NCBI RefSeq assembly: GCF_003612125.1
Contig: NZ_RAWI01000037.1
Location: 1 to 40,703 of the forward strand
DNA length: 40,703 nt
From: Corallococcus praedator
Lineage (GTDB): Bacteria > Myxococcota > Myxococcia > Myxococcales > Myxococcaceae
Direction: 5' to 3'
In this document: positions 19,274 to 40,670 of the stretch, piece after piece
Layout: the number at the start of each line of letters is the position of its first letter
Numbering within the stretch: the stretch's first letter is position 1
The notes under the pieces: generated by a model
Seen by the model: only the letters and a program-made list of their open reading frames with translations
The model's database searches: none
Told to the model about the DNA's origin: nothing
Translations under genes and position numbers: made by a program

Positions 19274-19282
19274 TGATTGTCA

Positions 19283-19302
19283 TCCTGCCCCCAGGGGCAG
19301 GA
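19283..19302 (-). promoter_or_regulatory. 9-bp inverted repeat overlapping ribosome site of JAB-like gene
   Basis: On the minus strand, TCCTGCCCC and GGGGCAGGA pair perfectly with a 2-base gap. The right arm is the purine-rich ribosome site of the gene starting at 19273. In RNA the site could be hidden in the stem, so a translational switch is possible; a real RNA loop would need to open one or two pairs. Confidence 0.45.
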
Positions 19303-19362
19303 CCGACGTTCATCGCCCCCGCCGCCGGGCAATTCCATACGCGACTGTGTTGTCCATTGGAG

Positions 19363-19386
19363 CGCCACGGGGGCGCCCCCGTGGCG
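19363..19386. promoter_or_regulatory. Perfect 24-bp palindrome, candidate operator
   Basis: The half-site CGCCACGGGGGC is followed directly by its exact reverse complement, giving 12+12 bp with no spacer. It ends 37 bp before the ATG of the TolC-like gene, the first gene of the efflux/lipid block. This is a good position for a dimeric repressor (TetR-like proteins often control RND pumps), but no regulator gene is adjacent. It could equally act as an RNA hairpin. Confidence 0.5.
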
Positions 19387-19423
19387 GGGGCATGGCTTCG
19401 CCCCTACCTGGGGAGCACCCTTT

Positions 19424-20914
19424 ATGAACGCCCTCCCGTTCGCAGCCCTGCTGGCCCAGCTTGGAGCCTCCGGCGTGGTCTCCGCCCAGCCCGGCCCTGA
19501 ACATCCCCAGGCCGTGGCCCAGGACACCGCGCCAGGACCTCGCGCCACGCCCACCCCGCAGCCCACCCAGGATCCGCAGGACGTGCCGGAGGTACCGCCA
19601 CCCTTCGAGGCGAACGTGTCGGATCCGCTGCTCGCCCCGGCATCCACCGCGCCGCTGCAGCTCACCTCGTGGAACCAGGCGCTCACGCTCCTGCGCCAGC
19701 GCTCCACCGACCTGCAGGCCGCCCTGGGACAGATTGAAGTGGCCGCGGGCACATGGCGCATCGCGCTCGCGAACCTGCTGCCCAGCGTCACCGGCACCCT
19801 GGGCGCCCAGTACAACGTGCTCAACCCGAGCCTGGTCGCCATCGGCGGTGGCGCTGGCGGCGGCCTTGGCGGCGGCGTGGGCACCGGCGGCGGCATCACC
19901 CCCACGGAATTGCTGGGCGTGGGCACGATCGCCGCGTCCGTGCCGCTGGTGGACCTGGCCAGCCTCTACGCCCTGGGCAGCGCGAAGGAGAACCGGCGCA
20001 CCGCCGCCCTGTCGCTCGCGGAGACGCGCCGGCAGCTCACCCGCGGCCTCGCACAGGCGCTCGTCTCCGTGTCCTCCACGGAGCGGCTGGCGGAGGTCAA
20101 CCGCGTCAACCTGCGCACCGCGCTGGAGCGGCTGGCCCTCGCGCAGCGCCGCTTCGAGCTGGGCGCCGGCACCCGCCTGGACGTCGTGCGCGTGGAGCAG
20201 GACGCGCAGGCCGCCCGCCGCAACGTGGTGACGGGCGACGAGGACCTGCGCCAGGCGCGCGAGTCCCTGGGGCTCGCGCTGGGCACCCCTTCCGCCGTGG
20301 GCCTGGCCAAGGGGCTGGAGCTGAACACCCTGCTCCAGGGCGCCAGCCAGACCTGCCACCCGCTGCAGTCGCTGGAGCGCCGCGCGGACATCGCCGCGGC
20401 CCGCTCCCGGCTGGTGGTGGCCGAGCGCGCCATTGGCGAGGTGAAGCGCCAGTACGCGCCCACGCTGGACCTCACCAGCAACACCACCGCGCTCACCGTC
20501 AACCCGGGCTTCGCGGAGGTGCCCATCTGGAACATCGGCGCAAGCCTCGTGCTGCCCTTCTGGGACGGCGGCGCGCGCGAGGGTCGGCTGCGCCAGACGC
20601 GCGGCCAGTTGGAGCAGGCCCGCGCGGACGTCGTCGCGCGCGAGCGCAACGTCGTCGTGGAGGTCACCCAGGCGAAGCGCGCCGTGCAGGTGAGCCAGGA
20701 GACGCGCGCCCTGGCGGACCGCGAGCTGAACCTCGCGAAGGAGAATGACCGGCTCTCCCGCCGCGCCTTCGAGGTGGGCACCGGAACGAGCCTCGAGCTG
20801 GTGGACGCGGCCGGGGCCCTGCGACAGGCGGAGCTGGCGCTCGTGATTCGAGACTTCCAACTGCGCCAGGCGCAGGTGGACGCATTCTTGTCGGAGGCAG
20901 CATGCGAGTGGTGA
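19424..20914 (+). CDS. TolC-family outer membrane efflux protein
   Basis: A 496-residue outer membrane channel protein. The start (MNALPFAALLAQLGASGVVSAQ) is a weak Sec signal, followed by a Pro-rich stretch to about residue 75. Two TolC-type repeats follow, each with long coiled-coil helices (WNQALTLLRQRSTDLQAALGQ; LALAQRRFELGAGTRLDVVRVEQDAQAARRN; REGRLRQTRGQLEQARADVVARERN; LSRRAFEVGTGTSLELVDAAGALRQAELAL). The 'RFELGxGTxLDVxRVEQ' and 'FEVGTGTSLELVDA' signatures mark the family. A Gly-rich loop lies near residues 145-165. It is the first gene of the set; the next starts 13 bp before its end, so translation is probably coupled. Together with the following two genes it should form a tripartite efflux pump. 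Confidence 0.9.
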   Translation: MNALPFAALLAQLGASGVVSAQPGPEHPQAVAQDTAPGPRATPTPQPTQDPQDVPEVPPPFEANVSDPLLAPASTAPLQLTSWNQALTLLRQRSTDLQAALGQIEVAAGTWRIALANLLPSVTGTLGAQYNVLNPSLVAIGGGAGGGLGGGVGTGGGITPTELLGVGTIAASVPLVDLASLYALGSAKENRRTAALSLAETRRQLTRGLAQALVSVSSTERLAEVNRVNLRTALERLALAQRRFELGAGTRLDVVRVEQDAQAARRNVVTGDEDLRQARESLGLALGTPSAVGLAKGLELNTLLQGASQTCHPLQSLERRADIAAARSRLVVAERAIGEVKRQYAPTLDLTSNTTALTVNPGFAEVPIWNIGASLVLPFWDGGAREGRLRQTRGQLEQARADVVARERNVVVEVTQAKRAVQVSQETRALADRELNLAKENDRLSRRAFEVGTGTSLELVDAAGALRQAELALVIRDFQLRQAQVDAFLSEAACEW

Positions 20915-22101
20915 GGGGTGATTGGGGCGCATGGGGACTCGTGCTCGCGCTTGCGGGCGGCTGCAGCGGCGGAAAGGAAGGGGGGCAGGGCGGGCCCGGT
21001 GGCGGCCCCCAGGGTGGCCAGCAGGGACAGGGCGGCGGCAAGCCCATGCCCGTGCAGGTGCTCCAGGTCCAGCCCGGCCCGGTGCGCGACACCCGCGAGT
21101 ACGTGGGCACGCTCATCTCCCGGCGCAGCATCACCGTCTTCCCGCAGGTGGCCGGCTACGTGCAATCCATCGCCGTGCACCCCGGGGACACGGTGCGCTC
21201 CGGCCAGGTGCTGCTCGTCGTGGACCCCCGTCAGGAACGGGCGACCCTGCGCGCCACCCAGGCGCAGAAGGCCTCCGCGGTCGCCAGCCGCGAGTTCGCG
21301 CGCAAGACGCGGGAGCGCAGCGCGCAACTGCTCAAGGAAGGCCTCGTGAGCCGCCAGGACTACGAGCAGGCCGTGGCCCAGGCGGAGCAGGCCGTGGCCC
21401 AGGCCCGCGCCGCGGAGGCACAGATTCAGAACCAGCAGGTGCAGTTGGGCTTCTTCAGCGTGAGCGCCCCCTTTGACGGCATCGTGGGCGACATCCCGGT
21501 GAAGCTGGGCGACTACGTGTCCTCTGAGACGGCGCTCACCATCGTGGACCAGAGCCGGGCGCTGGAGCTGTCCGTGCAGGTGCCGGTGGATCAGGCCAGC
21601 CGCGTGAAGCTGGGACAGACGCCCCTGGAGGTGCTGGACGACGACGGCAAGCCCGTGGTCCGCGCGCCCGCGTTCTTCGTCGCCACCACGCCCAACCCGG
21701 CCACGCAGCTGGTGGAGGTGAAGGCCGCCTTCGTCAACACCGTGGGCCTGAGGGCCGGCCAGCTGGTGCGCGCGCAGCTCGTCTACGACGTGCGCGAGGC
21801 CCTGAAGATGCCCACCACCGCGGTGACCCGGCAGGGCAGCCAGTCCTTCGCCATGGTGGTGGGACAGAGCGACGGCGGCACCGTGGCGAAGCGCCAGCCG
21901 GTGACGCTGGGGCTGGTGGAGGGCAACGACTACGAGGTGCTCAAGGGCCTGGACGCGGGCACGCAGGTGGTGATCAGCGGCGTGCAGCAACTGCGCGACG
22001 GCATGCCCATCACGGCGAAGCCCGCGCAGCAGGGCCAAACGGAAGGCATGCCCGACACCTCCGCGCCAGGCACGGGCGGCGGCGCGGACGCGGGCCGCTA
22101 G
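20902..22101 (+). CDS. RND efflux periplasmic adaptor (MFP), lipoprotein
   Basis: A 399-residue membrane fusion protein that joins the RND pump to the outer membrane channel. Its signal runs to ALAGGC (Cys21), so it is lipid-anchored as in AcrA, followed by a Gly/Gln-rich linker. The lipoyl half-motifs are split by a coiled-coil hairpin: AGYVQSIAVHPGDTVRSGQVLLVVD, then AQKASAVASREFARKTRERSAQLLKEGLVSRQDYEQAVAQAEQ, then VSAPFDGIVGDIPVKLGDYV. A beta-barrel and membrane-proximal domain follow (ALKMPTTAVTRQGSQSFAMVV, GLDAGTQVVISGVQQLRDG). The start overlaps the TolC-like gene, and the stop is 8 bp before the pump gene. The transported substrate is unknown. Confidence 0.93.
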   Translation: MRVVRGDWGAWGLVLALAGGCSGGKEGGQGGPGGGPQGGQQGQGGGKPMPVQVLQVQPGPVRDTREYVGTLISRRSITVFPQVAGYVQSIAVHPGDTVRSGQVLLVVDPRQERATLRATQAQKASAVASREFARKTRERSAQLLKEGLVSRQDYEQAVAQAEQAVAQARAAEAQIQNQQVQLGFFSVSAPFDGIVGDIPVKLGDYVSSETALTIVDQSRALELSVQVPVDQASRVKLGQTPLEVLDDDGKPVVRAPAFFVATTPNPATQLVEVKAAFVNTVGLRAGQLVRAQLVYDVREALKMPTTAVTRQGSQSFAMVVGQSDGGTVAKRQPVTLGLVEGNDYEVLKGLDAGTQVVISGVQQLRDGMPITAKPAQQGQTEGMPDTSAPGTGGGADAGR

Positions 22102-22109
22102 GGACTGCC

Positions 22110-25100
22110 ATGAACTTCTCCGAGTTCTTCATCAAACGCCCGGTCTTCGCGAGCGTGCTGTCCATCCTCATCACGCTCGTGGGCGCCATCTCCATCCCCA
22201 ACCTCCCCATCGAGCAGTACCCGGAGCTGGCCCTGCCCCAGGTGCAGGTGACGGCCACGTACACCGGCGCGTCCGCGGAGACGGTGGAGAGCGCCGTCAC
22301 CACGGTGCTGGAGCGCCAGCTCAACGGCATGGAGGGCATGCGCTACATGTCCTCCACCAGCACCAACGACGGCCAGAGCACCATCATCGCCACCTTCGAC
22401 CCGTCGCGCGACGTGGACCTGGCGGCGGTGGACGTGCAGAACCGCGTCGCCACCGCCACGCCGCAGCTGCCCCAGCAGGTCAACGCGCTGGGCGTCACCG
22501 TGCGCAAGGCGCAGACGCAGTTGCTCGTCTCCTTTGGCGTCTACGACCAGCAGAAGCGCTACGACACGGAGTTCGTCAGCAACTACGCGGACGTCTTCAT
22601 CCGCGACGCGCTGTTGCGCGTGAAGGGCGTGGGCGACGTGCGCATCTTCGGCGAGCGCCGCTTCGCCATGCGCCTGTGGTTGGATCCCACGGAGCTGGCC
22701 CGGCGCGGCCTCACCGCCCAGGACGTGCTGGACGCCCTCCAGGAACAGAACGTCCAGGTGGGCGCGGGCAAGGTGGGCCAGGCGCCCTCCTCCAAGGACC
22801 AAGCGTACCAGCTGTCGCTCCAGGTGAAGGGGCAGTTGACGTCCGCCAGCGAGTTCGGCGCCATCGTCATCCAGCGCGGGGCGGAAGGCGCGCTCGTGCG
22901 CATCCGCGACGTGGGCCGCGTGGAGCTGGGCGCGGAGAGCTACCAGCAGTTGTTGCGCTTCAACGGCCAGGACGCGGTGGGTCTGGGCATCACCCAGCTT
23001 CCGGGCTCCAACGCGCTGGAGGTGCGCGAGGGCGTGGAGAAGGAATTGAAGCGGCTGTCCGCGACCTTCCCGCCCGGCCTCACCTACAAGGTGGCGTTCG
23101 ACACCACGCTGGCGGTGAGCGCCTCCATCAAGGAGGTGCTCCACGCGCTGGGCGAGGCCATCCTCCTGGTCATCCTCGTCATCTTCATCTTCCTGCACGG
23201 CTGGCGCAGCGTGCTGGTCGCGGTGACGACGCTGCCGGTGTCGCTCGTCGGCACGTTCATGTTCGTCAACGCGTTCGGCTTCTCGCTCAACACGCTGACC
23301 CTCTTCGGCCTGACGCTGGCCACGGGCCTCGTGGTGGACGACGCCATCGTCGTCATCGAGAACGTCGAGCGCGTGATGGAGCACGAAAAGGTGGACGCGA
23401 AGGAGGCCACCACCCGGGGCATGCAGCAGGTGTCCGGCGTCGTGGTGGCCACCGCGCTGGTGCTCTCCGCGGTGTTCATCCCGGTGTCCTTCTTCCCCGG
23501 CACCACGGGCGCCATCTACCGGCAGTTCGCGCTCACCATCGCGTTCTCCATCAGCCTCTCCGCGCTCGTCGCCCTCACCCTGTCCCCCGCGCTGTGCGCG
23601 CGCCTCTTGCGCAGCAACGAGGGCAAGAAGTTCGTCCTCGCGCGCAAGTTCGATGACGGCCTGGATTCCCTGCGGCGCGGCTACGGGAAGCTCTTGGGCT
23701 TCATGCTGGGCAGGGCGAAGTGGTTCGTCGTCGCCGCGTTCGTCGTGTTCCTGGTCGCCACGGGGCTGCTCTATCGGGCCACGCCGTCCGGCTTCATCCC
23801 GGACGAGGACCAGGGCTACCTCATCATCGCGGTGCAGGGCCCGGAGGGCACGTCGCTGGAGTACACGCGCCAGGTGCTCCTCCAGGTGGAGGAGATCATC
23901 CGCGAGCAGCCGGAGGTGACGGACATCTTCACCGTGGGCGGCTTCTCGCTCCTGGGCACGGGCGCCAACTACGGCTCGCTGTTCATCAACCTCAAGCCCT
24001 GGGAGGAGCGCGAGAAGAAGGAGGAGAGCGTGGCCGGGATGGTGGAGCGCCTGCGCGGTCCGCTGGGCCAGGTGGGCGGCGCGCGCGTGCTGCCCCTGCA
24101 ACCGCCCGCCATCCGCGGCGTGGGCAGCGTGGGCGGCTTCGAGTTCGTGCTGGAGGACCAGCAGGGCGGCCGCTCCCTGGAGGAGCTGGCGCAGGCGACG
24201 CAGGCGTTGGTGGGCACGGCGGCGCGGGAGCCGCGCCTGAGAGGCGTGTTCTCCGCGTTCACGGCGGGCTCGCCGCAGCTCAACATCGACGTGGACCGCG
24301 AGAAGGCCAAGGCGATGGGCGTGCCCCTGTCCTCGCTGTTCTCCACGCTCCAGGTGTACCTGGGCAGCCAGTACGTGAACGACTTCACCTTCGCCAACCG
24401 CGTCTACCGCGTGTTCGTGCAGGCCGCGACGCCCTTCCGCGACAACCCGAAGGACATCGGCAGCTTCTACGTCCGCGCGGAAGGGGGCGGCATGGTGCCC
24501 CTGGAGAACCTGGTGAAGCTGACGCCCGTGGCCACCGCGCAGAACATCACCCACTACAACCTCTTCCGCTCCGCGAACATCAACGGCCAGGGCACCCCCG
24601 GCGTCAGCACCGGGCAGGCGCTCCAGGCCATGGAGGACGTGGCGAAGCAGGCGCTGCCCACGGGCTTCACCTACGAATGGACGGGCCTGTCCGCGGAACA
24701 GAAGAGCGCGGGCAACACCGTGCTCGTCATCTTCGCGCTGGGCATCGTGTTCGTCTTCCTGGTGCTGGCCGCGCAGTACGAAAGCTTCGCCCTGCCCTTC
24801 GTCGTCATGCTCGCGGTGCCCGTGGCCATGATGGGCGCGCTCCTGCTTCAGGGCGCGCGTGGACTGGTGAACGACGTGTTCTGCCAGGTGGGACTGGTGA
24901 TGCTGGTGGGCCTTGCGTCCAAGAACGCCATCCTCATCGTGGAGTTCGGAGAACAACTGCGCGCGCAGGGACAGGGCGTCGTGGAGTCCGCCATCAACGC
25001 GGCGGAGACGCGCCTGCGGCCCATCCTGATGACGTCCTTCGCCTTCCTCTTCGGCGTGGTGCCCCTGATGCTGGCCAGCGGCGCGGGCGCCTCGGCGCGC

Positions 25101-25310
25101 AAGTCGCTGGGCACCACCGTCTTCGGCGGGATGCTCTTCTCCACCTTCGTGAACCTCATCTTCATCCCCGTGCTCTACGCACTGGTGGAGGGCGCGCGCA
25201 CCAAGGTCCTGAAACACCGCAAGCCCGGTAACTCCACGGGGGGCCCCCCGAAAAACCCGCCGCCGTCCATCCCTCCTGGGAGGGATCCACACCGGCCGCA
25301 GCCCGCGTAG
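22110..25310 (+). CDS. HAE1-type RND efflux transporter permease
   Basis: A 1066-residue inner-membrane proton-driven pump. It has twelve expected transmembrane helices in two halves, beginning FFIKRPVFASVLSILITLVG. The proton-relay residues are present at near-AcrB numbering: Asp410-Asp411 in LATGLVVDDAIVVIENVERVM and Lys938 in GLASKNAILIVEFGEQL. The docking and porter domains have family motifs (YPELALPQVQVTATYTGAS, QYESFALPFVVMLAVP). The HAE1 group exports hydrophobic and amphiphilic compounds. The last 25 or so residues (GNSTGGPPKNPPPSIPPGRDP) are a Pro-rich tail unlike usual family ends and are encoded over G6C6 and a hairpin. The next gene begins 88 bp on. Confidence 0.95.
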   Translation: MNFSEFFIKRPVFASVLSILITLVGAISIPNLPIEQYPELALPQVQVTATYTGASAETVESAVTTVLERQLNGMEGMRYMSSTSTNDGQSTIIATFDPSRDVDLAAVDVQNRVATATPQLPQQVNALGVTVRKAQTQLLVSFGVYDQQKRYDTEFVSNYADVFIRDALLRVKGVGDVRIFGERRFAMRLWLDPTELARRGLTAQDVLDALQEQNVQVGAGKVGQAPSSKDQAYQLSLQVKGQLTSASEFGAIVIQRGAEGALVRIRDVGRVELGAESYQQLLRFNGQDAVGLGITQLPGSNALEVREGVEKELKRLSATFPPGLTYKVAFDTTLAVSASIKEVLHALGEAILLVILVIFIFLHGWRSVLVAVTTLPVSLVGTFMFVNAFGFSLNTLTLFGLTLATGLVVDDAIVVIENVERVMEHEKVDAKEATTRGMQQVSGVVVATALVLSAVFIPVSFFPGTTGAIYRQFALTIAFSISLSALVALTLSPALCARLLRSNEGKKFVLARKFDDGLDSLRRGYGKLLGFMLGRAKWFVVAAFVVFLVATGLLYRATPSGFIPDEDQGYLIIAVQGPEGTSLEYTRQVLLQVEEIIREQPEVTDIFTVGGFSLLGTGANYGSLFINLKPWEEREKKEESVAGMVERLRGPLGQVGGARVLPLQPPAIRGVGSVGGFEFVLEDQQGGRSLEELAQATQALVGTAAREPRLRGVFSAFTAGSPQLNIDVDREKAKAMGVPLSSLFSTLQVYLGSQYVNDFTFANRVYRVFVQAATPFRDNPKDIGSFYVRAEGGGMVPLENLVKLTPVATAQNITHYNLFRSANINGQGTPGVSTGQALQAMEDVAKQALPTGFTYEWTGLSAEQKSAGNTVLVIFALGIVFVFLVLAAQYESFALPFVVMLAVPVAMMGALLLQGARGLVNDVFCQVGLVMLVGLASKNAILIVEFGEQLRAQGQGVVESAINAAETRLRPILMTSFAFLFGVVPLMLASGAGASARKSLGTTVFGGMLFSTFVNLIFIPVLYALVEGARTKVLKHRKPGNSTGGPPKNPPPSIPPGRDPHRPQPA
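25269..25286. repeat. 8-bp inverted repeat at the 3' end of the RND gene
   Basis: ATCCCTCC and GGAGGGAT pair with a 2-base gap, inside the last codons of the pump gene. A perfect 14-bp G6C6-centred palindrome (25237-25250) lies just before it. Neither is followed by a T-run; they may slow transcription between the pump and the lipid genes. Confidence 0.4.
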
Positions 25311-25397: not shown

Positions 25398-27251
25398 ATG
25401 GCTTCTCCCCTCACGGTCGAAGAGCGGCGTCGGTGGCTGTACACGTTGAAGCAGGCGCCCGCGCTGCGCCACACCCGCACGTCCGTCCTCCTACGCCTGC
25501 TGGGGAGGGCACGGCCGGTGGAGCCCGCTCCCGGTGAAGGGGTGTGCCAGGAGGGCCAGGAGGTGGACGGCGTCTACCTGCTGCGCTCGGGCGAATGGAA
25601 GGTGACGGCGGGAGGGACGGTGCTCCTGCACCTGCGCTCGGGAATGTCACTGGGCGTGGAAGCGCTCGCACGGGGCATCTGGCCTGTCACGGTGACGGCG
25701 GTGTCCGCGTCGCAGGCGCTGTTCATTCCCCGCGCGGAGCTGGAGCTCGCCGCGGGCGCGCCCCGCCACGGCGTCTTCGCGACGGGCCCGCGCGCGGACG
25801 TGGTGACGTTCCGGACGCAGGGCCTGGAGCTGCCGCCCGCCGCGCTGTCCGTGCTGGTGGAGCTGGTGGCGAAGGTGATGGCCCACGACTTCGGGGACCG
25901 CGTGCTGCTGGTGCGCGCGGGGACGAAGCGGACGGAGGCCGCGGTGCGGGGGCCGGACGGGGTGTTCCGCCGCACCGTGGGGCCCGGCACGCTGGAGTCC
26001 TGCGCCGCGATGGCGCCGGACGGGGACTTCGACTGCGTGTTGCTGGACGGGCTCGCTGCGCCGGATGGCGTGACGGTCCGCGAGGTGCGGCTCGTGGCCT
26101 CCAGCGACGCGGCCGTGGGCATGGCCGGAGCATCGGTGCTGCCCACGGTGCTCCTGTCGCCGTGGCGCCCGCGCGCCAGCCCCACGCTGCGGGGCCGTCC
26201 CCTGCCCGACGAGGATGGCTGGGACGCGGACGCGCCGCCGCCCATCTGCCGGCTGCGGCTGGACTGGGAGCGGCTGGTGGTGCGACCCGGGGACACGCGC
26301 CCGCTGGCCGCGCTGGGGCTGGACGCGGGCACGCGGGATGCGCTGTCGCGCTGGGCGCGTGCCATCACCGGCCGGCGCGTGGGACTGGCGCTCAGCGGCG
26401 GGGGCGTGTGGGGCTTCTACCACGCGCACATCCTGCGGCGGCTGACGGCGCTGGACGTGCCGGTGGACTTCCTGAGCAGCTCCAGCATGGGCTCGCTGGT
26501 GGGCGCGTACTTCTGCGGCACCGCGCGCGACGGACGCGAGGGCCTGGATGGCCTGCGCCGGCTGCGCCACCGCGCCAGGAGCGGCCACCTGTCCGCCGCC
26601 GCGCTGTCGTCGGTGGTCACCACGCAGGCCATGGAGTGGCTGGTGCGGGGCGACCTGGGGAGCCTGTCGCTGGAGGAGCTGCCCACGGGCTTCCTGCCGG
26701 TGACGACCGACCTGACCACGGGCCGCTGCGTGGTGCTGGAGCAGGGGCCGCTCGCGCTGGCGGTGCGCGCCAGTGGCTCCGCGCCGGGGGTGTGGGCCCC
26801 CACGCTCCAGCCGCCCGCGCGGTACGTGGACGGGGCCTTCACCAGCATGGTGCCGGTGGACGTGCTCCTCAACGCGGGCGCGGACCTGGTCTTCTCCAGC
26901 AACATCTTCCCGGCGGGCCACCACCAGGCGGCGCGGCCGCTGCTGCCCGGACCGGTGGGGCTGTTCCTCTCCGCGCTCAACCCGGTGGCGCGGGCCATGG
27001 ACCTGCTGACCAGCGGCGTGTTGCTGTTGCATCGCAGTGGCGACCTGGAGTCGGCGCGCGGGGACCTGCGCTACGACGTGGGCACGCGCGACCATCCGCT
27101 GCTGGGCTCCATGCGCTTCACGCACGTGGACGAAGTGCTGGACGAGGCCGCGCGCGACATGGCCCTGGAGCAGAAGCTGCTGGAGTTCAAGCAGGCGTGG
27201 GAGTCCCTGCGCGTGCGCCGGAATCCGTCCGGCGGAAGGAGGGCCGCGTGA
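25398..27251 (+). CDS. Patatin-like phospholipase with N-terminal cNMP-binding-like domain
   Basis: A 617-residue protein with the domain order of neuropathy-target-esterase-type lipases. Residues about 20-115 look like a cyclic-nucleotide-binding beta-roll (PGEGVCQEGQEVDGVYLLRSGEWKV), but the phosphate-binding cassette is degraded (SLGVEALARGIW, lacking the FGE and Arg-Ala pattern), so cAMP binding is doubtful. A poorly defined middle region follows. The patatin domain starts with GLALSGGGVWGFYHA (oxyanion hole), then the elbow SSSMG with Ser363, and Asp478 in VDGAF completes the Ser-Asp dyad. The elbow is S-x-S-x-G rather than the usual G-x-S-x-G. A phospholipase or acyl-ester hydrolase is expected. 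The next gene overlaps its stop (GTGA), which implies coupled translation. Confidence 0.85.
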   Translation: MASPLTVEERRRWLYTLKQAPALRHTRTSVLLRLLGRARPVEPAPGEGVCQEGQEVDGVYLLRSGEWKVTAGGTVLLHLRSGMSLGVEALARGIWPVTVTAVSASQALFIPRAELELAAGAPRHGVFATGPRADVVTFRTQGLELPPAALSVLVELVAKVMAHDFGDRVLLVRAGTKRTEAAVRGPDGVFRRTVGPGTLESCAAMAPDGDFDCVLLDGLAAPDGVTVREVRLVASSDAAVGMAGASVLPTVLLSPWRPRASPTLRGRPLPDEDGWDADAPPPICRLRLDWERLVVRPGDTRPLAALGLDAGTRDALSRWARAITGRRVGLALSGGGVWGFYHAHILRRLTALDVPVDFLSSSSMGSLVGAYFCGTARDGREGLDGLRRLRHRARSGHLSAAALSSVVTTQAMEWLVRGDLGSLSLEELPTGFLPVTTDLTTGRCVVLEQGPLALAVRASGSAPGVWAPTLQPPARYVDGAFTSMVPVDVLLNAGADLVFSSNIFPAGHHQAARPLLPGPVGLFLSALNPVARAMDLLTSGVLLLHRSGDLESARGDLRYDVGTRDHPLLGSMRFTHVDEVLDEAARDMALEQKLLEFKQAWESLRVRRNPSGGRRAA

Positions 27252-28216
27252 TTCCCGTTCGCATCCTCGGCACGTCCAGCGTGCTGCCCGGCCCGCCGGT
27301 GACGACCGCGGAGTTGTGCGCGCGCGTGGGCCGAGACCCGGCGGAGGTGGAGAAGAAGACGGGCATCCGCACGCGGCACTTCGCCCCGGCGGGGACACGC
27401 GCGGCGGACCTGGGGGCCCAGGCCCTGAAGGGCGCGCTGGACGCGGCGGGCCTGGAGGCCACGGCGCTCAAGCGCATCCTCTTCGTGTCCTCCATGGGTG
27501 GGGACGTCACCACGCCGGCCAATGGCAGTCGGGTGGCGGCGGCGCTGGGGCTGGCCGGGACGTGCGACGCGATGGACGTGGGCAACGCGTGCATGGGGTT
27601 CCTGAGCGCGTTCGACCTGGCGGCGCGCTCGGTGGCCACGGGGCTGGGGCCGGTGGGCGTGGTGTCGGTGGAGCTGCTGTCGCGCACGACGCGGCCGGAG
27701 GACCCTCGGCCCTACCTGGTGCTGGGCGACGCGGCGGCTGCGGTGGTGCTGGGCGAAGCGCGGCCGGGCGAGGGCGTGCTGGGCGCGGCGTTCGGCAACG
27801 ACGGCACGCTGCCGCCGGACGTCGTCCTGGACAACCCGCACCTGACGGGCGAGCGCGGAGGGATGCGCTTCCTCACGCCCGCGAAGGACATGACGCGCGT
27901 GGCGCTGGGAGCGCTGACGCGCGCGGCGACGGCGGTGCTCCAGGGCGCGGGGCTGACGGTGGCGGACGTGGAGTGGGTGCTCACGCACCAGCCGAACGGG
28001 AGCATGTTCGCGGCCATCCTCCAGGCGCTGGAGGTTCCCCCGGAGAAGAGCGTCACGGTGGTGGACACGGTGGGCAGCGTGGGGTCCGCGTCGCTGGGGA
28101 CGGGCCTGGACCGGCTGTGGCGCACGCGCCCGGTGAAGCCGGGGGACCGGGTGTTGCTGGTGGGCGTGGGCGCGGGCGTGGCGCACGGCGCGGTGCTGTA
28201 CCGGGTGGGCGGGTGA
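27248..28216 (+). CDS. 3-oxoacyl-ACP synthase III-like (thiolase fold) enzyme
   Basis: A 322-residue thiolase-fold enzyme of the KASIII/OleA group, which joins an acyl chain to an acyl-ACP or acyl-CoA, or transfers acyl groups. The nucleophile is Cys115 (VGNACMGFLSAFDLA) and the His is His247 (LTHQPNGSM). The third residue, Asn in the usual GNTSAAS, aligns with Ser277 in TVGSVGSASLG, so the standard Cys-His-Asn triad is altered. The N-terminus RILGTSSVLPG and GDAAAAVVLGE fit the family. The GTG at 27248 overlaps the patatin stop and is the only start compatible with the family length. It is co-translated with the patatin before it and the acyltransferase after it. It is not the housekeeping FabH by context. 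Confidence 0.87.
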   Translation: MIPVRILGTSSVLPGPPVTTAELCARVGRDPAEVEKKTGIRTRHFAPAGTRAADLGAQALKGALDAAGLEATALKRILFVSSMGGDVTTPANGSRVAAALGLAGTCDAMDVGNACMGFLSAFDLAARSVATGLGPVGVVSVELLSRTTRPEDPRPYLVLGDAAAAVVLGEARPGEGVLGAAFGNDGTLPPDVVLDNPHLTGERGGMRFLTPAKDMTRVALGALTRAATAVLQGAGLTVADVEWVLTHQPNGSMFAAILQALEVPPEKSVTVVDTVGSVGSASLGTGLDRLWRTRPVKPGDRVLLVGVGAGVAHGAVLYRVGG

Positions 28217-28962
28217 CGGCGACGGGGAGCGCGGCAAGGGCCGCGTGGCTGGCGACGTTCCGCCTGCTCCAGCGCTACCACCGCTATGAGGTGGTGAACC
28301 TGGAGCCGCTGTTGCAACCGGGCGCGAAGCTGCTGGTGGGCTACCACGGGCGGCCCCTGGCGGTGGACCTGTGCATGCTGACGGTGACGCTGCATGACCG
28401 CCTGGGCTACCTGCCCCACGGCATCGCGCACGGCGCGTTCGACGCAATCCCCGGAATGCGGCAGGTGGCGGACGGGCTGGGCTTCGTCACCGGGGATGGA
28501 CCGCGCCTGGCCGAGGCGGTGGCGAAGGGCGAACACGTGCTGGTGCAGCCGGGCGGCACGCGCGAGGGCTGCCGCGACTTCCGGCACCGCTACCGCGTGG
28601 ACTGGGGGGAGCGGCTGGGCTACCTGCGGCTGGCCGTGCGCTACGGGCTGCCCATCGTGCCCATCGCGGGCCACGGCATGGACGACGCTTACGTGGGTTT
28701 GAATGACGGCCATGCCTGGGGCAAGCGCCTGAGCCTGCCTGGACGTCTGCCCTTGTGGCTGGGCGTGGGCGCCACGGGCCTGTGGCCGCTGTCCCTGCCG
28801 TTCCCGGTGAAGATGACGCAGTGGGTGGGGGAGCCCCTCACGCGCCACCTGGCGCCCGGCTTCGACGCGGCGGACCGGGACGCGCTGCTCACGGTGCACC
28901 GCGACGTGACGGGCGCGGTGCAGGGATTGCTGGACGCGGCCCGCTACCAGCGGACGCGGTAG
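28213..28962 (+). CDS. MGAT/LPLAT-like acyltransferase
   Basis: A 249-residue membrane-associated acyltransferase that moves an acyl chain onto glycerolipid or a similar alcohol. The motifs follow the MGAT-like branch of the LPLAT superfamily: GAKLLVGYHGRPLAVDL (His45 to Asp52), YLPHGIAHGAFDAIPGMRQVADGLGFV, then VLVQPGGTREGCRDFRHRYRVDW and GYLRLAVRYGLPIVPIAG. The His-to-Asp spacing is six residues, not the four of classic HX4D enzymes; related MGAT-like proteins vary here too. The GTG at 28213 overlaps the KASIII stop by 4 bp (GTGA), so it is the third member of a tightly coupled lipid operon. Its last 19 bp overlap the end of the opposing DUF2378 gene. Confidence 0.82.
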   Translation: MTATGSAARAAWLATFRLLQRYHRYEVVNLEPLLQPGAKLLVGYHGRPLAVDLCMLTVTLHDRLGYLPHGIAHGAFDAIPGMRQVADGLGFVTGDGPRLAEAVAKGEHVLVQPGGTREGCRDFRHRYRVDWGERLGYLRLAVRYGLPIVPIAGHGMDDAYVGLNDGHAWGKRLSLPGRLPLWLGVGATGLWPLSLPFPVKMTQWVGEPLTRHLAPGFDAADRDALLTVHRDVTGAVQGLLDAARYQRTR

Positions 28963-29504
28963 ATGGCGGCGCGCCCGTCGCGGGACTCCACGACGGTGGT
29001 GAGGCCCTTCACGCCCGTCGCCATGGTGCCGAAGTGGCAGATGGCGCCAATGAACTCCGGGTAGGTCCCGCCCTCGTTCACGCGGATCCGGAAGTCCGTG
29101 TCCGACACCTTCTGCACCTCCACGTGCAGGAAGTTGCTGCCGGACGCCAGGTTGCGGGAGGTGCGCTCCAGCGCCCGCGCCGGTCCCAACAGCTTGAGGA
29201 CACCCTTCAGGGCCCGCCCCATGTTCGTCTCGAAGTAGCCCTCGACGAAGCGCTCGCCCAGCAGCCACTGCGCCTCCTTCATGGGGACGCCCGGGAAGAG
29301 CTCTTCCGCGCCCAGTTGCAGCAACCGCTGCCACACGGCGTTGGGATAGGCCGGCTCCAGCTTGCGCTCCAGGTCCAGCCCGGCGGCCTTCAGCTTCGCC
29401 CGCAACGGCTCATCCATCCGGCCCTGCAAGGCCAACAGCAATCCTTCGACCGTATGGCCGAACACGAACTCATTCTGAGAGGACACCCGGTGCTCCTTCG
29501 CCAC
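28944..29504 (-). CDS. DUF2378 (TIGR02265) family protein
   Basis: A 186-residue protein of the myxobacterial paralogous family DUF2378/TIGR02265, largely limited to Myxococcus, Stigmatella and relatives. Recognisable parts are the start VFGHTVEGLLLALQGRM, the middle YPNAVWQRLLQLGAEELFPGVPMKEAQWLLGERFVEGYFETNMGRAL, and the C-terminal strand set FRIRVNEGGTYPEFIGAICHFGTMATGVK. No biochemical function is known for the family. The GTG at 29504 opens the frame with AKEHRVSSQ. Its 3' end overlaps the acyltransferase gene tail to tail by 19 bp, so the two transcripts are antisense to each other there. Its presence is one of the best taxonomic clues in the window. Confidence 0.87.
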   Translation of the reverse strand: MAKEHRVSSQNEFVFGHTVEGLLLALQGRMDEPLRAKLKAAGLDLERKLEPAYPNAVWQRLLQLGAEELFPGVPMKEAQWLLGERFVEGYFETNMGRALKGVLKLLGPARALERTSRNLASGSNFLHVEVQKVSDTDFRIRVNEGGTYPEFIGAICHFGTMATGVKGLTTVVESRDGRAAIYRVRW

Positions 29505-35148: not shown

Positions 35149-36015
35149 ATGCAAGTGCCACGACACCCTGAAGACACTCCTCCGGACGGCACACCCTCAC
35201 GAACCCCTCCCGCCCCACGTTGGGCTTTGATCCTGGGCGTCTCGTCAGGGTCGGGCGCGGCCATCGCGGAAGCCGTCGCGCGCAACCCAGGCCTGGACGT
35301 CTTCGGCGTGCACCGGGGCCGCTACCCGGACGCCGCGCTCCAGATGGAGGCCCGCGTGCGCGCGGTGGGTCGGGACCTCTTCCTGCGGCAGGCGGACGCC
35401 TCCACCGCCGAAGCCGCGGAGGACGGCGCGGACGCCCTGCTCGCTCGCGCGGGCCCCCGCAGCGTGAAGCTGTTCGTCCACGCCATCGCGGGCGCATCCG
35501 TGGGGCGCTTCCTGTCCGAGGGGCCGGACCGGCTGCACCCGCGCCGCGTGGAGCGCACCTTCGACTGCATGGCGCACTCGTTCGTGTACTGGACACAGGC
35601 GCTGGTGAAGCGCGACCTGCTGGCCCCGGACGCGCGGCTGCTGGGTCTGCAGAACCCCCTGGACGAATCCCACCTGGGCAACACCGGCCTCATCAGCGCC
35701 GCCAAGGCCGCGCTGGAGATGTACATCCGCTACCTGGCGGTGGAGCTGGGCCCGAAGGGCCACCGCGTGAACCTGCTCAAGTTCGGCACGGTGATGACGC
35801 CCGCCCTGCGCCACGTCTACTCGCCGGAGGCCCTGGCCCAGTTGGAGCAGCGCCACGCGGCCATGAACCCCGCGGGGCGCATGTGCACGGTGGAGGAGGT
35901 GGCGCGCTTCGTCTCCGTGCTCACCGGCGACGAAGCGGGCTGGTTCAACGGCGCCACCATCGACTTCACCGGCGGCATGACGCTGCGGCTGCTGGACCTG
36001 GTGCTCAACCCGTGA
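35149..36015 (+). CDS. SDR-family protein lacking catalytic Tyr
   Basis: A 288-residue Rossmann-fold protein. After a 23-residue Pro-rich extension, WALILGVSSGSGAAIAEAVA (30-40) is a dinucleotide-binding loop of the SDR/enoyl-reductase style. VHAIAGASVG and the C-terminal FGTVMTPALRH, VEEVARFVSVLTGDEAGWFNGATIDFTGGM also fit. The active-site helix reads GLISAAKAALEMYIRYLA: Lys186 is kept, but Ile182 stands where YxxxK proteins have Tyr, and no Tyr sits at the FabI spacing either. The Ser position is also changed (LLGLQNPLDE). It may be a non-catalytic or altered reductase. The ATG at 35149 leaves the leader; a later start is possible. It overlaps the methyltransferase end by 11 bp. Confidence 0.83.
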   Translation: MQVPRHPEDTPPDGTPSRTPPAPRWALILGVSSGSGAAIAEAVARNPGLDVFGVHRGRYPDAALQMEARVRAVGRDLFLRQADASTAEAAEDGADALLARAGPRSVKLFVHAIAGASVGRFLSEGPDRLHPRRVERTFDCMAHSFVYWTQALVKRDLLAPDARLLGLQNPLDESHLGNTGLISAAKAALEMYIRYLAVELGPKGHRVNLLKFGTVMTPALRHVYSPEALAQLEQRHAAMNPAGRMCTVEEVARFVSVLTGDEAGWFNGATIDFTGGMTLRLLDLVLNP

Positions 36016-36889
36016 CGGCCGGCTCCAGCGACGGAACGCGGAACGTGAGGCAGTAGTAGAAGGGTGACACCTGTTCCTCGATGACACCTTCGGCGTTGAG
36101 CGGCAGCAGCGAGCGCGGGCTCTTCGCGTCGCGCGTGTAGAACGTGAGGGCGCGGAAGGCGGCGCGCTGGAACAGCGACGGCTGGAAGCTCGCATCCAGC
36201 TGTTCGTCCACCACCACCAGCGGCGTGCCGGGGCGGGCCACGCGCGCCATCTCCAGCAGCGCCACCGCGGGCTGGCGGTAGCTGCCAATGGCCCCCACGT
36301 GGAAGACGCGGTCGAACGTCGCGTCGCGGAAGGGCAGCGCGTGCGCGTCCGCCAGGAGCAACCGGGTGCCCTCCAGGCCCCGACCCCGGCGCTTGCTGCC
36401 CAGCCGCTTCTCGCACTGCGCCAGCATGCCGGTGCTCAGGTCCAGGCCCCACACCTCCACCGCGAGCCCCGGCGGCAGCGCGCCCCGGATGCGCGGCAGG
36501 TTGGCGCCCGCGCCCACGCCCACCTCCAGCACCCGCACCGGCTGCCCGTCCTCGCGAGGCTGGAGCGCGCTCAACTCCAGCCGCCGCATGTACCCGTCGC
36601 GCATCCGCGACTCGGAGACGGACTGGAACAGCGGCGTCAGCAGGGCCGTCAGCGGATCATGCAGCGCGGGCAGCCCGTCGTAGATGTGGCGCATCAGCCG
36701 GTCCGTGCCGCGCACGCGGTCCTCGCGGTACAGCCGGGCCCGCCCCTCCTCCACCTCCCACGTCTCACCGCAGCCGCCGCAGCGCAGGCGTCCCTCGGTG
36801 AGCCGGTCCTCCTCGTTCTGCCCGTGCCACACCAGCCGGCCCCGGCAGTCCGGACACGCCAGGAGCGCCACATCCTCCACTCGCATCAT
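36005..36889 (-). CDS. SAM-dependent methyltransferase with zinc-ribbon N-terminus
   Basis: A 294-residue class I methyltransferase. The first 45 residues form a Trm112-like zinc ribbon with Cys12, Cys15, Cys37 and Cys40 (ACPDC, RCGGC). SAM-binding motif I is VLEVGVGAGANL (120-131), followed by WGLDLSTGMLAQCE, LLLADAHALPFRDATFDRVF and LLEMARVARPGTPLVVVDE, the UbiE/type-11 pattern. It starts 7 bp after the stop of the large kinase gene, in GGGGTGATGACGCG, so it should be co-expressed with that kinase. A longer start at 36925 would overlap the kinase. Small-molecule substrate unknown. The 3' end overlaps the convergent SDR gene. Confidence 0.87.
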   Translation of the reverse strand: MMRVEDVALLACPDCRGRLVWHGQNEEDRLTEGRLRCGGCGETWEVEEGRARLYREDRVRGTDRLMRHIYDGLPALHDPLTALLTPLFQSVSESRMRDGYMRRLELSALQPREDGQPVRVLEVGVGAGANLPRIRGALPPGLAVEVWGLDLSTGMLAQCEKRLGSKRRGRGLEGTRLLLADAHALPFRDATFDRVFHVGAIGSYRQPAVALLEMARVARPGTPLVVVDEQLDASFQPSLFQRAAFRALTFYTRDAKSPRSLLPLNAEGVIEEQVSPFYYCLTFRVPSLEPAVTG

Positions 36890-36896
36890 CGCGTCA

Positions 36897-39800
36897 TCAC
36901 CCCGCCGTGCCTTCCGCCATGCCATCCGTCAGCCTGGGCCGAGCCTGTTCGGCCACCGCGCGCTCCAGGTCCTCGCGTGCCTCCAGCCGGGTGAAGTCCT
37001 CCACCGCCAGTCGCAGCAGCTCCGCGCGCGCCGGGTCATCGACTTCCAGGTGCCGCGCCCACTCCAGCCGGGCGCGCGCCGCCTCGTAGGGCATCTGGCG
37101 CGCCGTGGCCTCCGCGATGCACCGCTTCCACGCCTGGAAGGCCTTGCCGTGCCGGCCCGAAAGCCACGCCTCGCAGCCGCGCCACAGCCACGCCGCGGGC
37201 GCTCCGAAGGGGAACACCCGGGCGAAGTCCTCCACCGACTTGAGCGCCGCGCGGGCGCTGTGCGTGAGCGCCTGCAACCCCGGGCCCGGCGTCTCGCGCG
37301 CCCACAGCGTGAGCAGCACCTCCGCCACCGTGATGGCGCCGAAGTAGACGAAGTGCGCCACCGGCTTGCCGGCCGACAGCCGCACCAGCGCCTTCTCCGC
37401 CGCCGCGCGCGCGCCCGCCGCGTCGTCCTCGCGCAGGCACAAGAGCGCCAGCGTGCCGTCCACGATGATGCGGTCGGTGGCCCCGCCGTGCGCCTCCGTC
37501 CACGCCAGCGCCGGCTCCAGCGCGACACGGGCCCGCGCGTGTTCGCCCAGCCGCAAGAGGATGTACGCGCGGTAGTGCATGGCCCAGTGCTGCGTCTGCA
37601 CCGCGCCCCGGCGCACGGCGGACGCCTCCAGCCAGTCCATCAGCGGCAGCCCGCGCGCGAACTGGCCCTGGTAGCAGCAGGCCACGTTGAGCAGCGCGCG
37701 GCACTCCTCCGCCAACCGCAGGTCGCCCACCGAGTCCACGATGGACGTCGCGCGCGCAAGCCACGCCTCCACGTCCTGCCAGTGCCCCTGGTACACCGCG
37801 CACACCGCGTTGCGGTTGAGCACGTAGGCCAGGTCCGACGGGCGGCCCACGCTCTCGGCCACGTCCTGCGCCCGCTTCACCCACGCGTCCGCCACGCGGT
37901 GCACCGGCACCGTGCCCGCCACCACCGCCATCACCGTGTAGCCGCGCGCCAATTCCGGCGTGGGCCCGGCGGGCTCGCACAGGTTGAGCATGCGCAGGCC
38001 GCTCCAGAGCACCGGCAGCGCTTCCTGCGCGTAGATGAACGCGTCGGTGAGCCGCATCAGCAGCCGGCCCGCAACCCGCCGGGCCTCGCGGCGCCTCACC
38101 GAGTCGTCCGCGTACGCATCCGGCCGGGCACTCTGCGCCAGCCTCACCAGCGCCTGGCCCAGCGTGCCCAGCACCCACCCCACGCGCGTCGTGGGCACGG
38201 GCCAGCCGAAGTGCGCGAGCGCCGCCTGCGCGTGCGCGCGGAACGCCTCCAGGTCTCCCAGTTGGAAGCGCGCCTCCGCCAGCAGGGCCTCCACCTGGCC
38301 CTGCTCCAGCGCAGTCGGCTGCGGAGCCACCGTCAGCGCCCGGGAGAGCAGGGGCAGGGCCTCGCGGCACGCGCCCACCGCCAGCGCCTCCTCGCCCGCG
38401 CGCCGCGCGTGGAGCGCCTCGCGGGCCACGTCCTGGGCCTGTCCCCAGTGGTACGACAGCGCCGCGGCGTGGCCCGTGGGGTGGGCGGCCTCCAGCGCCT
38501 GCGCCGCGCGCCGGTGGAGCGCGGGCCGGGACGCGGGCGACAGGTCCTCCAACAGCCGCTCCCGCAGCTTGTCGTGCGCGAAGCGCCAGCGTCCGTCCGC
38601 CACGTCCAGCACCGCCGCCGCCGCGCAGTCGGTGAGCCACGCCTCCACGTCCACGCCCGGGGCCGCGCACTGGAGCACCCGCAGGTCCAGCTCCCGGCCC
38701 AGCAGCGCCGCCACGTCCAGCAGGCCGCGCGCCTCCCGGGGCACCTTCTCCAGCCGGCGCTGCACCAGCGCGCGCATGCCGCCGGCCCACACGCGCTCCG
38801 GCAGCGCGCGGCCGCCCAGCCGGTCCAGGCCGCCCGCCTCCTCCGCCAGCGCGCGCACCACCTCCACGACGAAGAAGGGGTTGCCCTCCGATTCGCGGCG
38901 CAGCAGCTCCACCACGTCGGGCCGGCGGCCGATGGTGCCCAGCATGGACTCACCCAGCAGCGCGATCTCCTCCGAGTCCAGCCGGGGCAAGCGCAGCGTC
39001 CGGGTCCCGGGCAGCCGCTCCGGCAGGTGCGGGGCCTCGTCGTCGCGGAAGCTCGCGAGCAGCAGCAGCGGCAGCCCGGGGGCGCGCGCCGCGAGTTGGG
39101 CGAGCAGCTGGAGGGACTCGCTGTGCGCCTGGTGCAGGTCCTCCAGGATGACGACGGTGGGCTGGGGCAGCCGGCCGAAGAGGTCCTCCACGGTCTGGTG
39201 CAGCCGCAGCTGCGCCATCTCCGCGTCCAGCTCCGGGGCGGCCGGCACCGCGTGGCCCAGCAGCGTGTCCATGTCCGGCACCAGCGGCTTCAGGACGCGA
39301 GCGTCCCGGTCCGACAGCTCCGTGAGCATGGGCAGCCAGCGCAGCACCGCGCGCCACTCCTGGTAGGGCACGCCGCCGGTGTCCACTGCCTGTCCGCGCA
39401 GCACGACGGCGCCGCGCACCAGCGCCAGCGAGCGCAGCTCTTCCAGGAGGCGCGACTTGCCCACGCCGCTCTCACCGCCGACGAGCCACGCGCTGCCCTG
39501 GCCCGCGAGCGCGCGGTCGAGCACGTCGTTCAGGTGCTCGCGCTCGCTCACGCGGCCCACGAAGCGCGCGGACTGGAGGAAGCTCTCGCGGGTGGCGGCG
39601 GACTCGGCGGGCACGGGCTGGCCGGTGGCGGCGCACAGCGCGGCGATGACGGCCTCCGCGTCACGCGGCCGGCGGTGGGCGTCCGGGGCCACCAGCTGCT
39701 CCAGCGCGGCCTTGAGCGCGGGCGGGAAGTCCGGCGTCGCGAACACCTGGCCGGCGTGAGGCAGCCGCCCGAAGAACATCTGGCACGCCATGGCGCCGAA

Positions 39801-40472
39801 GCTGAAGAGGTCGGTCTGTTCGGACGGGGGCTGGTCCTCGAAGAGCTCCGGGGCCAGGTAGCCCGGGGTGCCGGCCGGGTGCGCGCGGCGGCCCTGGTCG
39901 CGGCCCACCGCGAGCCCGAAGTCCAGCACCTTCACCTGGCCGCGCACCACCAGCACGTTCCCGGGCTTCAGGTCGCGGTGGATGATGCCGCGCCGGTGCA
40001 GGTACGCGAGCGCCTGGAGCGTCTGCACCAGCAGCCCCACCTGCGTGGGCAGGGGCGCGTCCGAGCCGGCCTCCACCAGCGTGCGCGCGTCCTCCAGCAG
40101 GTCCATGGCCAGGTAGGGCCGGCCCTCGTTGTCGAAGCCGTAGTCCAGCACGCGGATGACGTGCGGGTGGCGCAGGGACACCAGCGTCTGGAACTCGTGC
40201 GCCAGCGACAGGGCCATGCCCTGGGTGGCGAAGGCGGAGGGCGTGCCTTTTCCGGGCCGGCGCGCCAGGTCCGCCACCGTCTTGTGCAGCCGCTTGAGAG
40301 CCACCGGCCCGGACAGCCCGTCCTGGGCGCGCCACACGGTGCCCGCGCCCCCGCGCCCCAGCAGGTCCAGGATGCGATAGCGGCGCCCCACCACCTCCGG
40401 ATCGAGGTCCGGAGACGCGTCAGGGTCCGGCACGTCCGTGCGGAGGGGTGTCTGGCAGGAGGAGTGGGACAT
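36897..40472 (-). CDS. Ser/Thr kinase fused to AAA ATPase and TPR-like repeats
   Basis: A 1191-residue cytoplasmic regulator. Residues about 32-285 are a Hanks-type kinase: GRGGAGTVW, Lys60 (VALK), HRDLKPGN with Asp167, DFG at 184-186, GTPGYLAPEL. Next is a LuxR/MalT- or adenylate-cyclase-style ATPase domain with Walker A GGESGVGKSR (332-341) and Walker B VVILEDLHQAH, then winged-helix-like and TPR-like helices to the end. Similar kinase-AAA-TPR proteins occur in myxobacteria and in eukaryote-like signalling. No membrane helix is seen. ATG at 40472 (MSHSSCQ) is chosen since kinase sequence begins soon after; upstream residues look non-coding. The downstream methyltransferase lies 7 bp away. 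The signal sensed is unknown. Confidence 0.9.
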   Translation of the reverse strand: MSHSSCQTPLRTDVPDPDASPDLDPEVVGRRYRILDLLGRGGAGTVWRAQDGLSGPVALKRLHKTVADLARRPGKGTPSAFATQGMALSLAHEFQTLVSLRHPHVIRVLDYGFDNEGRPYLAMDLLEDARTLVEAGSDAPLPTQVGLLVQTLQALAYLHRRGIIHRDLKPGNVLVVRGQVKVLDFGLAVGRDQGRRAHPAGTPGYLAPELFEDQPPSEQTDLFSFGAMACQMFFGRLPHAGQVFATPDFPPALKAALEQLVAPDAHRRPRDAEAVIAALCAATGQPVPAESAATRESFLQSARFVGRVSEREHLNDVLDRALAGQGSAWLVGGESGVGKSRLLEELRSLALVRGAVVLRGQAVDTGGVPYQEWRAVLRWLPMLTELSDRDARVLKPLVPDMDTLLGHAVPAAPELDAEMAQLRLHQTVEDLFGRLPQPTVVILEDLHQAHSESLQLLAQLAARAPGLPLLLLASFRDDEAPHLPERLPGTRTLRLPRLDSEEIALLGESMLGTIGRRPDVVELLRRESEGNPFFVVEVVRALAEEAGGLDRLGGRALPERVWAGGMRALVQRRLEKVPREARGLLDVAALLGRELDLRVLQCAAPGVDVEAWLTDCAAAAVLDVADGRWRFAHDKLRERLLEDLSPASRPALHRRAAQALEAAHPTGHAAALSYHWGQAQDVAREALHARRAGEEALAVGACREALPLLSRALTVAPQPTALEQGQVEALLAEARFQLGDLEAFRAHAQAALAHFGWPVPTTRVGWVLGTLGQALVRLAQSARPDAYADDSVRRREARRVAGRLLMRLTDAFIYAQEALPVLWSGLRMLNLCEPAGPTPELARGYTVMAVVAGTVPVHRVADAWVKRAQDVAESVGRPSDLAYVLNRNAVCAVYQGHWQDVEAWLARATSIVDSVGDLRLAEECRALLNVACCYQGQFARGLPLMDWLEASAVRRGAVQTQHWAMHYRAYILLRLGEHARARVALEPALAWTEAHGGATDRIIVDGTLALLCLREDDAAGARAAAEKALVRLSAGKPVAHFVYFGAITVAEVLLTLWARETPGPGLQALTHSARAALKSVEDFARVFPFGAPAAWLWRGCEAWLSGRHGKAFQAWKRCIAEATARQMPYEAARARLEWARHLEVDDPARAELLRLAVEDFTRLEAREDLERAVAEQARPRLTDGMAEGTAG

Positions 40473-40670
40473 ACGGGGGGCCGCCCTGCGAGCGAGGATA
40501 TCCCCCCTTCCCGCGCGGGAGGGGATTGAATGCAAACCGGGCAACCGAGGTAGGAGGCGCTTCGGACCCTGGTGGGCGGACCGGCGGGCAGGGCCCGGCT
40601 GGCTCCTTCCCTGTGAGGCAGCAGGGCACCATGTCTTGAAACACGCCTTGAGACACACGGGAGGCTGGCG
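40473..40670. other. 198-bp divergent intergenic region
   Basis: This gap lies between the kinase-AAA gene and the partial reductase gene and should carry both promoters. It contains a G-run next to the kinase start (40475-40480) and a GGGAGG ribosome site for the right-hand gene. No recognisable operator is seen. Confidence 0.4.

What the first reader, a model, noticed from the sequence alone, without database searches (positions are those of the whole stretch)
27248..28216. KASIII-like enzyme with the catalytic Asn replaced by Ser
Cys115 and His247 are intact, but the GNTSAAS position aligns with VGSVGSAS, putting Ser277 where KASIII, OleA and FabH have Asn. Asn helps the decarboxylative condensation step. 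KASIII-like acyltransferases such as CerJ also have a changed third residue (Asp), so this protein may transfer acyl groups or do a non-decarboxylative condensation.
Basis: partly seen in the sequence, partly recalled or inferred. Interest (0 to 1): 0.68.

Follow-up and report, generated by a model that had tools for sequence, protein, structure and literature searches.

The report
Fatty-acid-type synthase missing catalytic asparagine
A myxobacterial relative of the enzyme that starts fatty-acid synthesis carries a serine where its relatives carry a catalytic asparagine; the change is fixed across a whole family that is always inherited with the same lipid-enzyme genes, so it probably does different chemistry in a still unknown lipid pathway.

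Summary
ORF 27248-28216 (+) is a 322-aa KASIII-fold protein with Cys115 and His247 in place and Ser277 (codon AGC) at the FabH Asn274 position. It is not a one-off: 58 of 58 distinct family members have C/H/S, while 28 of 30 other KASIII proteins compared have Asn (the other two Tyr). The family is its own fully supported clade, separate from FabH and OleA and under purifying selection.

It belongs to a conserved cassette: KASIII(Ser), an LPLAT-type acyltransferase, an SDR and usually a methyltransferase, often with a patatin and a Ser/Thr kinase. In 96 family genomes the first three co-occur perfectly (57/57/57, none elsewhere). The SDR also lacks its catalytic Tyr.

OleA's Glu117 is absent too. 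The best precedent is PqsC, a Cys-His-dyad KASIII that lost Asn (to Val) yet still makes C-C bonds with a non-malonyl partner. I favour a PqsC-like condensation (0.4) over acyl transfer (0.25), malonyl condensation despite Ser (0.2) or a non-catalytic role (0.1). Product unknown. New variant of a known kind.

The parts
27248..28216 (+). KASIII-like protein with Cys-His-Ser active site (GTG start overlapping the stop of the patatin gene: GTGA)
27590..27592 (+). codon of nucleophile Cys115 (NAC motif)
   Evidence: invariant 58/58
27986..27988 (+). codon of His247 (HQPN motif)
   Evidence: invariant 58/58
28076..28078 (+). codon AGC of Ser277, at the FabH Asn274 position
   Evidence: Ser in 58/58
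25398..27251 (+). patatin-like hydrolase with N-terminal cNMP-binding domain, same operon
   Evidence: Pfam PF01734, PF00027; upstream in the Corallococcus, Myxococcus and Pyxidicoccus loci examined
28213..28962 (+). LPLAT/DAGAT-type acyltransferase, GTGA overlap with KASIII
   Evidence: below-cutoff Pfam PF01553/PF03982 hits; conserved HGRPxxxD and PGGTREG motifs; within 50 bp downstream of KASIII in 37/41 loci; 57/57 co-occurrence
35149..36015 (+). SDR, sequence-closest to FabI/FabL, lacking catalytic Tyr (true start may be about 40-70 bp later)
   Evidence: 57/57 co-occurrence
36005..36925 (-). class I methyltransferase with Trm112-like zinc-ribbon N-terminus
   Evidence: present in 54 of the 57 genomes and in none of the other 39
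36897..40658 (-). Ser/Thr kinase with AAA_16 domain, conserved cassette neighbour in many genera
19277..25310 (+). RND efflux operon (OEP, MFP, RND) upstream, conserved only in part of the family

Best explanation
The protein is a KASIII-fold enzyme (probably a homodimer) dedicated to a small myxobacterial lipid cassette. Shown by sequence: thiolase/KASIII fold, invariant Cys115 and His247, invariant Ser277 replacing the malonyl-decarboxylating Asn, and strict co-inheritance with an LPLAT-type acyltransferase and a Tyr-less SDR. Inferred: Cys115 is acylated from an acyl-CoA or acyl-ACP. Because Asn is missing, malonyl thioester is a poor second substrate. His247, as in PqsC, activates a different carbon nucleophile (such as a beta-keto acid or other activated carbonyl compound) and the enzyme forms a C-C bond. 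The other cassette enzymes (SDR, O-acylation by LPLAT, methylation) then elaborate the product into an unidentified lipid. A separate, firmer claim is that it is a catalytically altered, non-FabH acyl-Cys enzyme of a lipid cassette (about 0.75).
For: C115 and H247 invariant in 58/58 with Ser277 in 58/58. dN/dS 0.13-0.29, so the protein is under constraint. Separate clade with support 100/100. Far below the FabH and OleA family cut-offs: TIGR00747 157.6 vs 292.1, NF006720 97.9 vs 285. LPLAT and SDR present in exactly the same 57 of 96 genomes, also where only some species of a genus carry the cassette. The genome keeps a separate canonical FabH with Asn (L002). Precedent: PqsC has Cys129/His269 with Val299 in place of Asn, condenses octanoyl-CoA with 2-aminobenzoylacetate, its H269A mutant loses >10,000-fold activity, and V299 lowers malonyl-CoA use (PMC4807248).
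Against: No substrate, product or assay is known. PqsC works as a PqsBC heterodimer and its substrate supplies the missing amino function; no second KASIII lies in this cassette. Ser can donate a hydrogen bond, unlike Val, so the analogy is imperfect. The SDR lacks the Tyr that normally handles keto/enoyl reduction, which weakens the argument that a ketone intermediate is reduced. No ACP, CoA-ligase or obvious non-malonyl substrate supplier was seen in the cassette.
Confidence: 0.4

Rival explanations
1. KASIII-fold acyltransferase: Cys115 takes an acyl group and passes it to an O, N or S nucleophile (alcohol, sugar, glycerolipid or carrier protein), like CerJ and ChlB3 in function.
For: Asn, needed for decarboxylation in FabH (PMC4807248), is lost while the transacylating Cys is kept; the gene is coupled to an LPLAT acyltransferase.
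Against: CerJ/ChlB3 architecture (His at the Asn position, Asp at +5) is absent: Ser277 and Ser/Ala282. The cassette already has an O-acyltransferase. His247, dispensable for ChlB3-type transfer, is invariant.
Confidence: 0.25
2. A decarboxylative malonyl condensing enzyme after all, with the Ser277 hydroxyl or a bound water replacing the Asn amide in the malonyl oxyanion site.
For: The fold is closest to FabH and BioZ; Cys and His are intact; an SDR follows in the same cassette as expected for a beta-keto product; Ser can donate a hydrogen bond.
Against: Asn is required for decarboxylation in E. coli FabH (PMC4807248); 28 of 30 other KASIII proteins compared keep Asn; a canonical FabH is present in the same genome (L002).
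Confidence: 0.2
3. A non-catalytic or regulatory KASIII homologue, for example an acyl-CoA sensor or a scaffold for LPLAT/SDR.
For: Two cassette members (KASIII, SDR) have each lost a hallmark catalytic residue; a genomic paralogue has lost both His and Asn (L003).
Against: Cys115, the NAC and HQPN motifs and the glycine-rich C-terminal loop are invariant, unlike a degenerating or scaffold protein.
Confidence: 0.1

Closest known systems
[quoted passage not shown] coli, N. meningitidis)
   Same: Thiolase fold over the whole length (Z 42, 1.9 A), Cys and His of the triad, HQ-N motif; 27-30% identity.
   Different: Asn274 replaced by Ser in every family member; AAC motif is NAC; HQANxR is HQPNG (the Arg is not kept); scores far below the FabH family cut-off; distinct clade.
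PqsC of PqsBC (Pseudomonas quinolone synthesis)
   Same: KASIII with Cys-His dyad and the catalytic Asn naturally lost (PMC4807248).
   Different: Val instead of Ser; works as heterodimer with PqsB; no pqs-type gene context here.
OleA (head-to-head acyl-CoA condensing thiolase)
   Same: Shares the NAC motif, His, fold and a GNxG / GSVG-like loop.
   Different: Keeps Asn, needs Glu117 (absent here), sits with oleBCD (absent here); 25% identity; separate clade.
CerJ / ChlB3 (KASIII-like acyltransferases)
   Same: KASIII-fold proteins with a changed third active-site position; CerJ is a weak sequence match (E 2e-6).
   Different: Use Cys, a His (by spacing at the Asn position) and an Asp five residues on; here Ser277, Ser/Ala282 and a retained FabH-type His247.

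Membership tests
FabH / KASIII proper | KASIII thiolase fold with nucleophilic Cys and His | tested here: met
FabH / KASIII proper | catalytic Asn in GNTSAAS | tested here: not met
   Ser in 58/58
FabH / KASIII proper | score above curated FabH cut-off (TIGR00747, PRK09352) | tested here: not met
   157.6 vs 292.1 and 174.1 vs 249 bits
OleA | Glu117 followed by Pro on the dimer partner | tested here: not met
   T/V/I/A-Pro in this family; Glu-Pro in XcOleA and myxobacterial OleA
OleA | score above NF006720 cut-off and oleB/C/D neighbours | tested here: not met
   97.9 vs 285 bits; no OleC ligase or OleB hydrolase seen in the cassette
CerJ/ChlB3 KASIII-like acyltransferases | His at the FabH Asn position and Asp five residues later | tested here: not met
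   Ser277 and Ser/Ala282; ChlB3/CerJ residues from PMC9573744; position equivalence inferred from spacing, CerJ sequence not aligned here
CerJ/ChlB3 KASIII-like acyltransferases | acyl transfer to O/N/S nucleophile | not testable with these tools
   needs enzyme assay
PqsC-type Asn-less condensing enzyme | Cys-His dyad with the Asn lost | tested here: met
   PMC4807248
PqsC-type Asn-less condensing enzyme | heterodimer with a PqsB-like second KASIII encoded next to it | tested here: not met
   only one KASIII gene per cassette in the loci read

The most novel reading that the evidence does not exclude
A distinct class of KASIII enzymes with a Cys-His-Ser active site, working in an undescribed myxobacterial lipid pathway in which two enzymes borrowed from fatty-acid synthesis (KASIII and an enoyl-reductase-like SDR) have both lost their hallmark catalytic residue and do new chemistry together with an LPLAT acyltransferase and a methyltransferase.
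Probability: 0.4. Interest if true: 0.7.

Novelty: new variant of a known kind. Interest (0 to 1): 0.5.

Why it matters
Natural replacements of the KASIII Asn are rare and each characterised one marks new chemistry (PqsC in quinolone signalling, CerJ/ChlB3 in acyl transfer). Here the replacement is fixed in a whole clade and tied to a compact, co-inherited set of lipid genes in genetically tractable bacteria (Myxococcus xanthus carries it). Deleting three or four genes and comparing lipid extracts could identify both a new lipid and the reaction of a Cys-His-Ser KASIII.

Tried and rejected
Sequencing error or single-species drift: rejected, Ser in 58/58 distinct proteins from independent assemblies. 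Misalignment: rejected, gap-free in five FabH alignments and in the MAFFT set. OleA membership: rejected (Glu117, score and context). CerJ-type active site: rejected (positions 277 and 282). Nearby active-site Asn as substitute: N113 (NAC) and N250 (HQPN) are invariant, but OleA and FabH carry the equivalents too (N113 as in OleA, N250 as in FabH Asn247), so neither is a newly gained Asn. My recollection that a Ser could replace the enoyl-reductase Tyr (InhA Y158S wild-type-like) was checked and dropped: a later study finds 0.16% activity (PMC6222099). Literature searches for KASIII with Asn replaced by Ser, or for this myxobacterial cassette, found nothing in the open library. Plasmid records show only KASIII at under 35% identity among the rows listed. 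CerJ and PqsC are not in the 50 VIA rows shown; this says nothing about the fold. Active-site distances could not be measured because model coordinates are not released.

Full report
Check of the observation. The ORF 27248-28216 (+) encodes a 322-aa protein with KASIII domains. HMMER alignments to solved FabH proteins are gap-free across the last motif and place GSVGSAS under GNTSAAS; Cys115 and His247 lie under the FabH Cys and His, Ser277 under Asn274. The AlphaFold2 model (pLDDT 91, pTM 0.91) superposes on E. coli FabH and BioZ over the whole length (Foldseek TM 0.92; VIA Z 42-44). The codon is AGC.

Is it more than one gene? Orthologues were collected from genome contigs, 145 genomes of the order and 195 of the phylum. 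Fifty-eight distinct family proteins, from 97% down to 39% identity and including three distant loci (L023, L024, L116), all have Cys115, His247 and Ser277; 42 columns are invariant, among them N113, Q248, P249, N250, G251 and G276. The 30 other KASIII proteins aligned alongside (myxobacterial FabH and OleA, assorted paralogues, E. coli FabH, Xanthomonas OleA) have Asn in 28 cases and Tyr in 2. The Ser family is a clade with support 100/100 on a long stem, separate from FabH and OleA. Pairwise dN/dS against six relatives is 0.13-0.29, so the protein is constrained.

Surroundings. Patatin (25398-27251), KASIII and an LPLAT-type acyltransferase (28213-28962) are joined by GTGA four-base overlaps. 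In other genera the LPLAT is followed at once by an SDR, and usually by a convergent methyltransferase with a Trm112-like ribbon and a large Ser/Thr kinase. In the window the SDR (35149-36015), methyltransferase (36005-36925, minus) and kinase (36897-40658, minus) lie 7 kb downstream, separated by Corallococcus-type insertions (DUF2378, a BKACE gene, a Sel1 protein). The LPLAT lies within 50 bp downstream of the KASIII on the same strand in 37 of 41 loci (some genomes are represented twice). In 96 genomes of the family, KASIII(Ser), LPLAT and SDR are present in exactly the same 57 genomes and absent from the same 39; the methyltransferase is in 54 of the 57 and none of the others. Within two genera (g3, g6) some species have all three genes and others none, so the pattern is not only shared descent, although the simple probability ignores phylogeny. 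In G044 the LPLAT and SDR are at a different locus from the KASIII and still co-occur. An RND efflux operon precedes the cassette only in part of the family.

A second altered enzyme. The SDR aligns best by sequence with FabI/FabL. Where FabI has Tyr146 and Tyr156 it has Asn and Thr/Cys/Ala/Leu; the classical YxxxK position is Ile/Val; the Lys and the glycine-rich cofactor motif remain. Its model is a generic SDR fold of moderate confidence (pLDDT 78). Loss of this Tyr nearly abolishes InhA (PMC6222099). So two cassette enzymes derived from fatty-acid-synthesis families have each lost a hallmark residue.

Mechanism. In FabH, His and Asn together decarboxylate malonyl-ACP while Cys carries the acyl group (PMC4807248). 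Keeping Cys and His while losing Asn is the pattern of PqsC (Cys129, His269, Val299), which still forms a C-C bond but with 2-aminobenzoylacetate, and in which the Asn loss lowers reaction with malonyl-CoA. It is not the pattern of CerJ/ChlB3, whose triad is Cys-His296-Asp301 (PMC9573744): from the spacing that His sits at the Asn position and the Asp five residues further, and both are Ser or Ala here. It is not OleA's, which needs Glu117 (PMC7064751); that position is Thr/Val/Ile/Ala. I therefore favour acyl-Cys115 plus a non-malonyl carbon nucleophile activated by His247, with Ser277 as a small hydrogen-bonding residue. Shown: residues, clade, constraint, cassette and co-occurrence. Inferred: acylation of Cys115, the nature of the second substrate, C-C bond formation, and the role of the other cassette enzymes. 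Not known: the product.

Comparison and novelty. By fold it is a KASIII-like protein; by residues, score and tree it is neither FabH, OleA nor CerJ, and it resembles PqsC only in having a Cys-His dyad. I found no report of a natural KASIII with Ser at this position, but the library holds only open-access papers. I rate it a new variant of a known kind.

Noticed in passing
L003 1489-2484 (own genome C1380:7514-8485); also L141: Another KASIII paralogue in the same genome keeps the Cys but has Thr for the catalytic His and Tyr for Asn (FTQLN, GYTGSAC), shared with another genus.
   Followed up: partly
window 35149-36015 (+): FabI/FabL-like SDR of the cassette lacks the catalytic Tyr at both possible positions in all relatives examined, while Lys and the cofactor motif stay.
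   Followed up: yes
window 25398-27251 (+): Patatin with an N-terminal cyclic-nucleotide-binding domain, translationally coupled to the KASIII; its first GxSxG Gly is Ser (SSSSMG) in the window and several relatives.
   Followed up: partly
window 28944-29504 (-); L007, L008, L009, L011, L012: DUF2378 gene between LPLAT and SDR occurs in several copies in some Corallococcus loci, as if the insertion region expands.
   Followed up: no
window about 32130-32876 (+): A beta-keto-acid cleavage enzyme (BKACE, PF05853) lies between LPLAT and SDR in several Corallococcus loci only; possible link to a beta-keto intermediate.
   Followed up: partly
L019 (BNCN01000005.1): A record titled Comamonas sp. KCTC 72670 carries the full myxobacterial cassette at 77% identity; the record is probably a mislabelled Myxococcus genome.
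   Followed up: no
L068, L069, L070, L071: A second Ser-type KASIII copy (62-64% identity) in a few genomes lies in a rearranged cassette (KASIII, kinase, methyltransferase, then SDR on the opposite strand), with the patatin also turned around; both copies keep Ser.
   Followed up: partly
L011, L012 (KASIII around residue 172): Orthologues in two Corallococcus species carry a 13-23 residue in-frame repeat insertion (GLGDGGLGDG) in the KASIII.
   Followed up: no
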